A DNA stretch of 64,000 nt from Thiomicrospira sp. WB1 (GCF_001507535.1 NZ_LQBN01000001.1:434001-498000); one strand, 5' to 3'; counted from the first letter of the stretch, positions 3,018 to 62,125 are shown. Notes: generated by a model from the sequence alone, not told the origin. Translations and numbers: made by a program.

Positions 3018-3698
3018 TTAGGGACTCAATCGGGTTAATGACCAGGCCTGGTTAAAACAGCCAGCCTGTCCGCCTGTGCAATCATAACGAAACCGATCAT
3101 GCAGGCGGTTTTCCCGTCCCTGCCAGAATTCAAACCGATGTGGGCGCAGTCGATAACCGCCCCAATGCGGTGGGCAGTCAATGTGGGGGCCCTGTTCGCT
3201 GTCGGCAATCTGAATATTCTGTTCCAGTGTTTTGCGCCCCGGCAGTGGCTGGCTCTGCTCGGACACCAGCGCTGCCAGTTGGCTGTCGCGTGGTCGTGTC
3301 TTAAAATAAGCCTGGTTGGTGGCCGCATCGGTTTGTTCTACTTGCCCTTCAATGCGTACCTGCTGTTCCAGTTCCGGCCAATAAAAAAGCAGCGCCGCGC
3401 GCGGCTGGTGCGCCAGCTCCTGTCCTTTGTCACTGTTGTAATGGCTGTAGAAGACCAGACCGGTTTCATCCATGGATTTGAGCAGAACGATTCGACTGTG
3501 TGGCTGGCCGCTGGCATCGACCGTCGCCAGACTCATCGCTGTCGAGTCTTTGATCCCTTCCTGCATTGCGCCGGTCAGCCATTCGTCAAACTGTTGGAAA
3601 GGGTCAAGGTGCAACTGACTGCGTTCCAGGGAACCACGCTGGTAATCGCGGCGTTGCTGGTGGTAATCACCCGAAGGTGAGACGTTGGGATCGGCCAT
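3018..3698 (-). CDS. pdxH: pyridoxamine 5'-phosphate oxidase
   Basis: A 226-residue FMN enzyme that oxidises pyridoxamine or pyridoxine 5'-phosphate to pyridoxal 5'-phosphate. Family landmarks are AMSLATVDASGQPHSRIVLLK in the middle, YFKTRPRDSQLAALVSEQS, and the C-terminal WGGYRLRPHRFEFWQGR followed by RLSP at the end. Length and ending agree with the family. The codons for the near-terminal residues Q-A-W coincide with one copy of the dispersed palindrome (3041-3052). The intergenic stretch to divergent parE (about 175 bp) should hold both promoters. Confidence 0.97.
   Translation of the reverse strand: MADPNVSPSGDYHQQRRDYQRGSLERSQLHLDPFQQFDEWLTGAMQEGIKDSTAMSLATVDASGQPHSRIVLLKSMDETGLVFYSHYNSDKGQELAHQPRAALLFYWPELEQQVRIEGQVEQTDAATNQAYFKTRPRDSQLAALVSEQSQPLPGRKTLEQNIQIADSEQGPHIDCPPHWGGYRLRPHRFEFWQGRENRLHDRFRYDCTGGQAGCFNQAWSLTRLSP
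3041..3052. repeat. dispersed palindrome ACCAGGCCTGGT, copy 1
   Basis: Exact copy inside the 3' end of pdxH, where it encodes Q-A-W. The right flank continues TAAAAC. Confidence 0.95.
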
Positions 3699-3875
3699 GG
3701 TTCAAGTCCTGTGGTTGCCGGAGCAGCGTGGTTTGAAACCACTGAGGTTAGGGGGTAATATAACTCGCGCCGGTCGACACAACGTTGTGTTCGTGCCGGG
3801 TTTTGACTAAGTATCTTAACCTAATTGTCGATGCCTTGCCAATGGCGGGCGGAGCGATCAAAAGGAGTGATCAGG

Positions 3876-5762
3876 GTGAGCCAGGACTATAATGCCGCCG
3901 AAATTGAAGTGTTGACGGGCCTGGACCCGGTGCGAAAACGCCCGGGCATGTATACCGACACGTCCCGCCCCAATCACTTGGCCCAGGAGGTGATCGACAA
4001 CAGTGTGGATGAGGCACTGGCCGGATACGCCGACACCATTGAGGTGGTGCATCATGCAGATGGCTCCATGTCCGTCGCTGACAATGGCCGCGGGATGCCG
4101 GTGGATGAACACCCCGAACAGAAAAAACCGGGCGTTGAAGTGATCTTGAGCACGCTTCACGCCGGTGGGAAATTTTCCAGTAAGTCGTATCAGTTTGCTG
4201 GCGGCCTGCATGGCGTGGGGGTGTCGGTGGTCAATGCCCTGTCAAAACAGGTCGACATTGAAATCAAACGCGGCGGTCAGCGCTATGAAATCGGGTTTGC
4301 GTCCGGCGAATGCGTTGAACCACTCAAAGCCGTGGGCAAGGTGGGCAAGAAAAACACCGGCACCAAACTGCGTTTCTGGCCGGACGCCGGTTTTTTTGAC
4401 AGCGTGAAATTTGCCCTGGGCAAGCTCAAACATCTGATGCGAGCCAAGGCGGTGCTTTGCTCCGGGTTGACCATTTCGTTTCTGGATGAGTCGACCGGTG
4501 AGCAGACCACCTGGTATTATCAGTCGGGCCTGAGTGATTACCTGAATCAGGCGCTGGAAGGCATTGAACGGGTGCCTCATGAAGGTTTTGTGGGGGAAGC
4601 GCATGGAGAGCACGAGGGCGTGGACTGGGCCATGACCTGGTTGGCGGAACCGGCGGAAACCCTGCTTGAAAGTTACGTCAACCTGATTCCCACACCTCAG
4701 GGCGGCACGCACGTCAATGGCTTGCGCGCCGGAACCACAGACGCCCTTCGAGAATTTTGTGAATTTCATAACCTCTTGCCGCGGGGCGTCAAAATCACCC
4801 CGGAAGATGTCTGGCAGAATGTGGCTTTTGTGCTGTCGGCCAAACTGCGCGAACCGCAATTTGCCGGCCAGACCAAAGAGCGGCTGTCCTCGCGTGAGTG
4901 TGTCCCGTTTATCTCCGGGGTGGTGAAAGACAGTTTGAGTTTATGGCTGAATCAGCATACCGAAACCGCGCAACAGATTGCGGAACTGGTGATTCGCAAT
5001 GCGCAAAGCCGCAATAAAAAAGCCAAAAAGGTCACGCGCAAGAAGATTACCTCGGGTCCGGCTTTGCCCGGTAAGCTCGCTGACTGTACCGAATCGGATC
5101 TGAACATGACCGAACTGTTTCTGGTGGAGGGCGACTCGGCTGGCGGCTCAGCCAAACAGGCCCGAGACAAAACGTTTCAGGCGATCATGCCGTTGCGGGG
5201 CAAAATTCTCAATACCTGGGAGGTCGATTCGTCCGAGGTGCTGGCGTCTAATGAAATTCATGACATTTCGGTTGCCATCGGGGTTGATCCGGATTCGGAA
5301 GATTTGTCCGGTCTGCGTTATGGCAAGATTTGCATTCTCGCCGATGCCGATTCGGATGGGGCGCACATTGCCACTTTGATCTGCGCCTTGTTTGTGAAGC
5401 ATTTTCCGCGGCTGGTTCAAAACGGCCATGTGTATGTGGCGATGCCCCCTTTGTATCGGGTCGATGTCGGCAAGCAGGTATTTTATGCCCTGGACGAGTC
5501 GGAACGTGAAGGGTTGCTGGATCGGATTCAGGCGGAAAAAATGCCGGGTAAGGTTCAGGTGACTCGGTTCAAAGGTCTGGGGGAAATGAGCCCGGTGCAG
5601 CTGCGGGAAACCACCATGCAACCGGCCACCCGGCGCCTGATTCAGTTGGCGCTGGACGAAGAAGACACCGAGCCGATGATGGATAAATTACTCGCCAAAA
5701 AACGTTCGGCCGACCGGCGTGCCTGGCTGGAAGAAAAAGGCGATCTGGCCGAGGTGGTGTGA
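3876..5762 (+). CDS. parE: topoisomerase IV subunit B
   Basis: A 628-residue ATPase subunit of topoisomerase IV, which decatenates daughter chromosomes with ParC. The GHKL fold shows in [17 protein letters not shown] and [18 protein letters not shown], and the TOPRIM domain in [18 protein letters not shown] and [12 protein letters not shown]. The C-terminal segment has [10 protein letters not shown], typical of the family. I chose the GTG at 3876 because AGGAG lies 8 nt before it and the protein then begins [25 protein letters not shown], at the 630-residue size of ParE. An upstream in-frame ATG at 3825 lacks such a site. ParC is 2 kb downstream, not adjacent. Confidence 0.96.
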
Positions 5763-5763
5763 C

Positions 5764-61239: not shown

Positions 61240-61261
61240 GATAAAAAAGTCAAGTTGCACA

Positions 61262-62077
61262 ATGGAAGAACAATTAAAAAATGCGATGAACGCCATCAAA
61301 GGCGTCAAAATTCCCAATCTGCCCAAAGAAGTGTTGGAGCTGGACGAACAGCTCTCCAGCCGCTTTCCCAATAATCAGACCATCACTGAAATCATTCAAA
61401 GCAACACCAAACTTTCCGGTGAAGTCCTGCGCATCGTAAACTCGCCGGTGATCAAAACTTCTCACCCGATCAAAACCATTCGCGAAGCCGTGGACGTTCT
61501 GGGCTACACCAACCTTAAAAACCTGGTGTTGGCCAGTGCGCTACAGAATTTGTTTAACACCGCCGAAGTCAATGAAATCATTGAGCACTCCAAAGACGTG
61601 GCCTTCTGCTGTGCGGAACTGTCGGAACTGGTGCAGGGGGTATCGCGTGATGAGGCTTATCTGGTCGGACTGTTTCACAATGCCGGTTCCCTGCTGCTGG
61701 CCAGTAAAGACCCGGAATACGTCAAACTGTTTGCGCGCTTTAATACCCATCCTATTTCGACGTTGAATCAGGAAATGGCGCAGTATGGCGCCAATCACAC
61801 CTTTATCGGCGTGTTGATCGGGCAGAAGTGGCGCTTGTCGATCGAAGTGCTTAATGCCATTATGACGCATCATATGCCCTGCGAACAGATCAAAAATGAC
61901 GAGGTTCGCGCCATGGTCGCCATGATCAAAGTGAGCAATGTGGTCGTCAACGAAGTCTCCTACGATCGTTTTCTCTCGAACGAGTCGAAGCAGGAACTGC
62001 AGGACGGTCAACAGGAACTGATGATTACCGATGATCAGATCCAGCGGGTGCGTAAAGCCTTGATGACCACAGGGTAA
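61262..62077 (+). CDS. HDOD-domain signalling protein
   Basis: A 271-residue single HDOD domain. VKIPNLPKEVLELDEQLSS, SGEVLRIVNSPVIKTSHPIK and IREAVDVLGYTNLKNLVLAS, then LVGLFHNAGSLLLAS and MTHHMP, follow the HDOD pattern. HDOD proteins resemble HD phosphodiesterases but lack the catalytic pair and act in signalling, often with c-di-GMP or motility pathways. Exact role unknown. I start at the ATG at 61262; the ribosome site is weak. Confidence 0.85.
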   Translation: MEEQLKNAMNAIKGVKIPNLPKEVLELDEQLSSRFPNNQTITEIIQSNTKLSGEVLRIVNSPVIKTSHPIKTIREAVDVLGYTNLKNLVLASALQNLFNTAEVNEIIEHSKDVAFCCAELSELVQGVSRDEAYLVGLFHNAGSLLLASKDPEYVKLFARFNTHPISTLNQEMAQYGANHTFIGVLIGQKWRLSIEVLNAIMTHHMPCEQIKNDEVRAMVAMIKVSNVVVNEVSYDRFLSNESKQELQDGQQELMITDDQIQRVRKALMTTG

Positions 62078-62103
62078 TGCTCGTACGGCATGGCTTGACC
62101 CAG

Positions 62104-62125
62104 TTTTGACCAGGCCTGGTCAAAA
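62104..62125. repeat. dispersed palindrome copy 11, within a perfect 22-bp palindrome
   Basis: ACCAGGCCTGGT at 62109-62120 is extended symmetrically by TTTTG and CAAAA. It lies 31 bp after the HDOD gene stop, ahead of argB. Confidence 0.95.

What the first reader, a model, noticed from the sequence alone, without database searches (positions are those of the whole stretch)
3041..62120. Dispersed 12-bp palindrome ACCAGGCCTGGT, 11 exact copies
Exact copies start at 3041, 7524, 12995, 19358, 21883, 33155, 38207, 43822, 51954, 60162 and 62109; one-mismatch copies start at 30560 and 30991. A given 12-mer is expected about 0.004 times in 64 kb of random sequence. Many copies have T-runs on the left and A-runs on the right, giving a rough extended consensus with AAAAAG after the core. 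The density (one per about 6 kb) would mean hundreds per genome. I know of no named element with this sequence. Candidates are a DNA-uptake signal, a nucleoid or segregation protein site (like SlmA or MatP sites), a terminator, or a site tied to methylation. It differs from known Haemophilus and Neisseria uptake sequences.
Basis: partly seen in the sequence, partly recalled or inferred. Interest (0 to 1): 0.88.

Follow-up and report, generated by a model that had tools for sequence, protein, structure and literature searches.

The report
Palindromic uptake-signal-like motif with dialects
A 12-letter DNA palindrome repeated about 400 times through this bacterium's genome is real, and its relatives carry different 'dialects' of it; the pattern closely resembles the DNA-uptake tags known so far in only two other bacterial families, although its function is not yet tested.

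Summary
The window holds 11 exact copies of ACCAGGCCTGGT; the whole 2.28-Mb genome holds 400 (reversed control 0). Outside the family, 365 gammaproteobacterial genomes hold at most 5 each. Inside the family, counts range from 0 to 660, and several zero-count relatives carry a different but related motif in hundreds of copies, such as AAAATCTrCCAGGyTGGGG or ACCGGCCGGT: a family of dialects. Perfect copies outnumber one-mismatch copies (60:16 in sampled DNA). Copies are spaced more evenly than random, lie mostly just after stop codons but also inside genes, and nearly all have an A/T tract just outside the core, in coding sites too. They are missing from an 83-kb acquired island. These are published hallmarks of DNA uptake signal sequences, described only in Neisseriaceae and Pasteurellaceae. 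ComEC, ComEA and DprA genes are present. Most likely this is a third, independently evolved uptake-signal system, unusual in being palindromic in many species. Uptake itself and the receptor are not shown. The main rival is an intracellular dimeric DNA-binding protein. Terminator, methylation (HIP1-like) and mobile-repeat readings are disfavoured by tests.

The parts
3041..3052 (.). exact copy, inside the 3' end of pdxH (3018-3698, minus strand), 7 bp from the ung gene's start side
7524..7535 (.). exact copy, intergenic, 22 bp after the stop of an HMA-domain gene (7218-7502 +), upstream of parC (7614-9842 +); flanks TTTTTT and AAAAAAG
12995..13006 (.). exact copy inside prmC (12480-13364, minus strand), read as HQAWS; relative G009 has a site at the same codons
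19358..19369 (.). exact copy, intergenic, 18 bp after the stop of prs (18366-19340 +); G009 has a site in the orthologous gap
21883..21894 (.). exact copy, intergenic, 18 bp after the stop of ychF (20774-21865 +), convergent gap
30560..30571 (.). one-mismatch copy (ACCAGGTCTGGT), convergent intergenic gap, 21 bp after the stop at 30539
30991..31002 (.). one-mismatch copy (ACCAGGCCTGGC) inside a methyltransferase-domain gene (30590-31507, minus strand)
33155..33166 (.). exact copy inside bioF (32571-33773, minus strand)
38207..38218 (.). exact copy directly at the stop codon of tatC (38218-39228, minus strand), in the gap to the next gene
43822..43833 (.). exact copy in the divergent gap between hisB (43125-43715 -) and a + strand gene (44155-45585)
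51954..51965 (.). exact copy inside a copper-type P-type ATPase gene (50116-52650 +)
60162..60173 (.). exact copy inside a phosphoglucomutase/phosphomannomutase gene (59739-61154 +)
62109..62120 (.). exact copy, intergenic, 32 bp after the stop of an HDOD gene (61262-62077 +), before an amino-acid-kinase gene (62195-63106 +)

Best explanation
ACCAGGCCTGGT with an A/T tract 2-6 bp outside the core is the local dialect of a genome-wide DNA uptake signal. A receptor of the DNA-uptake (competence) machinery binds it and so favours DNA of the cell's own kind. Each time marked DNA is taken up and recombined in, marked alleles win, so copies accumulate wherever a substitution can create one harmlessly: just after genes, and in tolerant QAW or PGLV positions of proteins. 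When the receptor's specificity drifts, the genome drifts to a new dialect. Shown here: copy number, consensus strength, flanks, spacing, location, dialects, substitution origin, absence from an acquired island, presence of comEC, comEA and dprA. Inferred: that uptake is the selecting step, that a receptor (probably a minor pilin) reads the motif, and that many species read it as a two-fold symmetric site.
For: 400 copies, reversed control 0; family-confined, at most 5 in 365 other gammaproteobacteria. Mutually exclusive dialects in congeners. Perfect copies exceed one-mismatch copies (60:16, 23:3, 21:2, 21:3, 15:2). A/T tract kept in coding sites too. Spacing CV 0.607 versus 0.99, 0 of 5000 simulations. 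57% intergenic versus 10% noncoding, mostly 5-50 bp after stops. Substitution origin in mostly ungapped alignments. Absent from an 83-kb low-GC island with a relaxase and a transposase. ComEC, ComEA, DprA and prepilins present. The same features are published for USS and DUS.
Against: No uptake or binding data and no receptor identified. ComEC, ComEA and DprA are also in motif-less relatives, so they do not discriminate. Density (0.18-0.31 per kb) is below that of typical USS/DUS genomes. Known uptake signals are not palindromic. GspH/FimT was found only in two motif-less genomes. Even spacing and palindromy also fit an intracellular binding protein.
Confidence: 0.6

Rival explanations
1. The motif is the binding site of an intracellular, sequence-specific dimeric protein that organises, compacts, segregates or protects the chromosome (as SlmA, Noc or MatP do with their palindromic sites). 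The core is the dimer contact and the A/T tracts are bendable flanks.
For: Two-fold symmetric core with A/T tracts on both sides in many sites; spacing more even than random; chromosome-wide, not strand-biased.
Against: 400-660 copies; perfect copies exceed near-misses, unlike ordinary protein sites (argument in PMC1626085); five or so mutually exclusive dialects inside a family, even a genus; many near-identical genomes of the same family have no motif; asymmetric dialect in G001, G004 and G011.
Confidence: 0.25
2. The motif is a transcription-termination or transcript 3'-end element placed after stop codons.
For: Intergenic copies sit mostly 5-50 bp after a stop. In G009, G002 and G006 the layout AAAAnnn-core-nnnTTTT is terminator-like, with a downstream T-run in 67-92% of intergenic sites.
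Against: In this genome only 38% of intergenic sites have a downstream T-run and 55% have an A-run; 26 of 60 sampled sites are inside genes and keep the same A/T flank. A terminator does not need an invariant stem sequence.
Confidence: 0.06
3. A HIP1-like palindrome driven by an orphan DNA methyltransferase and repair bias (the core is two overlapping Dcm sites, CCAGG and CCTGG, around GGCC).
For: Palindrome containing CCWGG and GGCC; HIP sequences of cyanobacteria also change between genomes (PMC4390886).
Against: No C5 methyltransferase (PF00145) in this genome or in 12 of 18 motif-bearing relatives. ACCGGCCGGT has no CCWGG and CCAGGTTGG has no GGCC, so no short site is common to the dialects. 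Density is several-fold below HIP1's roughly 1 per kb, and A/T flanks and intergenic preference are extra.
Confidence: 0.04
4. A short mobile or copied repeat (REP- or MITE-like).
For: High copy number and strong consensus.
Against: Nothing is conserved beyond about 12 bp from the core edge. Coding copies arise by substitution in mostly ungapped alignments. Spacing is more even than random. Dialects differ in core bases.
Confidence: 0.02

Closest known systems
Pasteurellaceae uptake signal sequence (USS; Hin AAGTGCGGT, Apl ACAAGCGGT)
   Same: Hundreds of near-perfect copies, A/T-rich segment beside the core (here nAWWWW after ...GGT), clade dialects, substitution origin, coding and intergenic copies (PMC1626085).
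   Different: Unrelated core sequence; here the core is palindromic in most species; one A/T tract on either or both sides instead of two on one side; 2-5 fold fewer copies; stronger preference for gene ends.
Neisseriaceae DNA uptake sequence (DUS; ATGCCGTCTGAA and dialects)
   Same: 12-bp length, species dialects that exclude one another, intergenic preference, use near terminators, depletion in islands (PMC3630211, PMC7371117).
   Different: Unrelated sequence; DUS has no A/T flanks and is not palindromic; receptor ComP is known there, none here.
Cyanobacterial HIP1 (GCGATCGC)
   Same: Highly iterated palindrome without known insertion mechanism that changes between genomes (PMC4390886).
   Different: HIP1 goes with methyltransferases, has no A/T flank and is about 1 per kb; here no C5 methyltransferase is needed.
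SlmA, Noc and MatP chromosome sites
   Same: 12-14 bp palindromes dispersed in the chromosome (own knowledge).
   Different: Those have tens of copies, defined chromosomal zones and other sequences; here hundreds of copies, no zone seen except an acquired island, and dialects within a genus.

Membership tests
DNA uptake signal sequences (USS/DUS as a functional class) | Hundreds of copies, far above composition | tested here: met
   400 genome-wide; 60 versus about 0.1 expected in 304 kb
DNA uptake signal sequences (USS/DUS as a functional class) | Perfect copies outnumber singly mismatched copies | tested here: met
   60:16 here; 23:3, 21:2, 21:3 and 15:2 in relatives with their own dialects
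DNA uptake signal sequences (USS/DUS as a functional class) | Copies arise by substitution, not insertion | tested here: met
   42 of 65 coding-site/orthologue comparisons have no gap within 8 residues on either side; the rest are mostly poorly conserved stretches
DNA uptake signal sequences (USS/DUS as a functional class) | Dialects among related species | tested here: met
DNA uptake signal sequences (USS/DUS as a functional class) | An inner core shared by all dialects | tested here: inconclusive
   CAGGCCTG in most; CCGGCCGG in G032 and CCAGGyTGG in G001, G004 and G011 share only part of it
DNA uptake signal sequences (USS/DUS as a functional class) | Depleted in horizontally acquired islands | tested here: met
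   no copy in C1:209050-292350, GC 45-49%, relaxase and transposase present
DNA uptake signal sequences (USS/DUS as a functional class) | Frequency near one per kb | tested here: not met
   0.18 per kb here, up to 0.31 in G020; this is a typical value, and lower ones occur (H. ducreyi)
DNA uptake signal sequences (USS/DUS as a functional class) | Competence genes in the genome | tested here: met
   ComEC, ComEA, DprA and prepilins found; also in motif-less relatives
DNA uptake signal sequences (USS/DUS as a functional class) | Preferential uptake of DNA that carries the motif | not testable with these tools
   needs uptake assays
DNA uptake signal sequences (USS/DUS as a functional class) | A surface receptor (ComP-like or PpdA/ComN-like minor pilin) | tested here: inconclusive
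Pasteurellaceae USS (as a sequence family) | Core AAGTGCGGT or ACAAGCGGT | tested here: not met
   top over-represented 8-12-mers are ACCAGGCCTGGT and its parts
Neisseriaceae DUS (as a sequence family) | Core like GCCGTCTGAA | tested here: not met
HIP1-type highly iterated palindromes | A methyltransferase that recognises part of the motif in every bearing genome | tested here: not met
   no PF00145 match in 13 of 19 motif-bearing genomes, this one included; N4 and N6 methyltransferases not searched
Intrinsic terminators | G+C-rich hairpin followed by a T-run, outside genes | tested here: not met
   43% of sampled copies in genes, downstream T-run in 38% of intergenic copies
SlmA/Noc/MatP-type chromosome sites | Tens of sites, confined to or excluded from ori/ter zones | tested here: not met
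   400 sites, present in stretches of C1-C4 and C6 (none in the 5.6-kb C5); the only long void seen is a low-GC island; ori/ter not mapped precisely

The most novel reading that the evidence does not exclude
A genome-wide recognition code read by a two-fold symmetric protein that is not the DNA-uptake receptor, for example a chromosome-organising factor with hundreds of near-invariant sites whose specificity changes between sister species.
Probability: 0.22. Interest if true: 0.9.

Novelty: new variant of a known kind. Interest (0 to 1): 0.85.

Why it matters
[quoted passage not shown] A third, independent case in free-living, apparently sulfur-oxidising bacteria, with about five dialects inside one family and several inside one genus, would show that this form of bacterial mate choice evolves repeatedly. 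It would also make dialect switching, receptor co-evolution and symmetric versus asymmetric recognition directly testable outside pathogens. If the motif is not an uptake signal, it is an unexplained genome-wide code of similar interest.

Tried and rejected
Terminator: rejected for this genome on flank layout and coding copies. Methylation/HIP1/Dcm-Vsr: disfavoured by absence of C5 methyltransferases and lack of a shared short site. Mobile repeat: rejected. Strand-oriented Chi- or KOPS-like role: the asymmetric dialect is near equal on both strands of G001, G004 and G011, and + strand sites in G011 are evenly spread (67 seen, 64 expected in the first 43% of the chromosome). FimT/GspH as receptor: found only in two motif-less genomes. 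ComEC, ComEA and DprA as discriminators: present with or without the motif, apart from ComEA missing in one motif-less genus. Orthologous-gap test: shared-site gaps exceed expectation by Fisher (p = 0.003), but a gap-length-matched permutation gives p = 0.04 (0.085 for different-dialect pairs), so it is suggestive only. No paper holds the 12-mer, and searches did not link this group to uptake sequences.

Full report
OBSERVATION. The whole genome (2.28 Mb, 6 contigs; window = C1:434001-498000) has 400 copies; the reversed control has none. In 304 kb of sampled genome there are 60 exact copies against about 0.1 expected from trinucleotide composition. So the copies are not confined to the window and the count is far above a Markov expectation.

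WHOSE GENOME. The nearest named matches of the window's HemA are MAGs of Hydrogenovibrio and of an unnamed gammaproteobacterium at 65-66% identity, then a Thiotrichales MAG. I infer a member of the Thiomicrospira/Hydrogenovibrio/Thiomicrorhabdus group of sulfur oxidisers. The unnamed MAG's genome has 84 copies of the 12-mer and the Hydrogenovibrio MAG has none.

DISTRIBUTION AND DIALECTS. In the same family the 12-mer count ranges from 0 to 660, even between species of one genus (0 to 515). In 365 other gammaproteobacterial genomes the maximum is 5. K-mer scans of sampled stretches of 25 genomes (this one and 24 relatives) show that several zero-count relatives have a different, related motif. 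G001 and G011 have AAAATCTrCCAGGTTGGGG, G004 has AAAATCTrCCAGGCTGGG, and G032 has ACCGGCCGGT. G002, G003, G006 and G009 have AAAAnnnCCAGGCCTGGnnnTTTT, and G016 and G022 a looser NNCAGGCCTGNN. G012, G013, G017, G019, G025, G059 and G065 show no such motif; the G007 sample (13.5 kb) is too small to tell. Genome-wide, CTRCCAGGYTGGG occurs 314, 331 and 376 times in G004, G011 and G001 and at most once in any of the other 56 family genomes searched, with near-equal strand use. The palindromic and asymmetric dialects are therefore mutually exclusive at the level searched.

ANATOMY. The common plan is a 9-12 bp core, two-fold symmetric in most species, with a 4-5 bp A/T tract beginning 2-4 bp outside it. 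In this genome the tract is on at least one side in 59 of 60 sites and on both in 38 of 60 (random 27% and 3%). It is as strong in coding as in intergenic sites, so it belongs to the recognised signal and is not a terminator's T-run. Nothing is conserved further out. Perfect copies outnumber all one-mismatch copies together: 60 to 16 here, with 11 of the 16 changed only at an outermost base.

PLACEMENT. By my own gene calls, 57% of sites are intergenic against 10% noncoding DNA. They lie mostly 5-50 bp after a stop codon and are rarer in divergent gaps. The rest are in genes, read mainly as QAW or PGLV. Coding sites align with orthologues mostly without gaps, so they arise by substitution. The first 100 sites on C1 are spaced more evenly than random (CV 0.607 versus 0.99, 0 of 5000; 10 gaps under 1.5 kb versus 27 expected). 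The one long void, C1:209-292 kb, has GC 45-49% instead of 54%, and carries a TrwC relaxase, a transposase, a type II secretion system and glycosyltransferases, that is, an acquired island. Some orthologous gaps carry a site in each species' own dialect. An example is the gap beside a gene that I recognise from its start as probably phosphoribulokinase (not tested), in G000, G032 and G011. The excess of shared gaps is only suggestive after matching for gap length.

MECHANISM. These features are published hallmarks of uptake signals: strong consensus, A/T flanks, clade dialects, substitution origin, intergenic preference with many coding copies, and depletion in islands (PMC1626085, PMC3630211, PMC7371117). 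Their even spacing has been noted, though one author judged it weaker than expected for a compaction role (PMC1939737). The genome has ComEC, ComEA, DprA and prepilins. I therefore hold the uptake-signal reading most likely (0.6). Shown: the sequence pattern and the gene content. Inferred: uptake preference, receptor, and molecular drive as the cause of accumulation. Not discriminating: the competence genes are also in motif-less relatives. Not found: the receptor; FimT/GspH was seen only in two motif-less genomes.

RIVALS. An intracellular dimeric DNA-binding protein remains possible (0.25), because symmetry, spacing and flanks fit it. The near-invariant consensus, the 400-660 copies and the within-genus turnover speak against it. 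A terminator role is rejected for this genome but may be a secondary use in G009-like species. A HIP1-like methylation role is disfavoured because no C5 methyltransferase is found in this or most motif-bearing genomes and the dialects share no short site. A mobile repeat is rejected.

STATUS. It works like USS/DUS in its genomic behaviour. It is not a member of either known sequence family, since both core sequences were tested and not met. The defining functional test, preferential uptake, could not be made. No paper found holds the 12-mer or reports uptake sequences in this group, and a 2025 paper names only two families with such systems. Limits: sampled stretches rather than whole genomes for most statistics, unnamed relatives, and a home-made gene finder.

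Noticed in passing
G000:C1:209050-292350 (L045-L048): 83-kb low-GC island without motif: TrwC relaxase, transposase, Fic protein, type II secretion genes, TonB receptor, RTX-repeat protein, glycosyltransferases.
   Followed up: partly
G005 loci L179 and L194: A dispersed repeat that translates as PERSRRI / VILSEAEGS...KDPSASLRMT lies in many copies around the prepilin genes of this relative.
   Followed up: no
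G004:C1:1-100000 (L071-L075): Strong local repeat (12-mers such as ACCTAGCCGCGG, about 26-28 copies in about 10 of the 1-kb bins), unrelated to the motif.
   Followed up: no
G000 sampled stretches: 12-mer AGAACCAGAACC occurs 18 times (0.06 expected), probably an internal repeat of a gene.
   Followed up: no
window 22177-26469: Two adjacent PAS-GGDEF genes; the first matches blue-light (YtvA-like) sensor models in its N-terminal part.
   Followed up: no
G004, G001 and G011 sampled stretches (L066-L080, L097-L101): The asymmetric dialect sometimes occurs as close inverted pairs (for example L068 13949+/13978-), as reported for DUS pairs near terminators.
   Followed up: partly
G013 and G019 (L163, L164): GspH/FimT-type minor pilin detected only in these two motif-less genomes of the 22 searched, inside a pseudopilin cluster.
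   Followed up: partly
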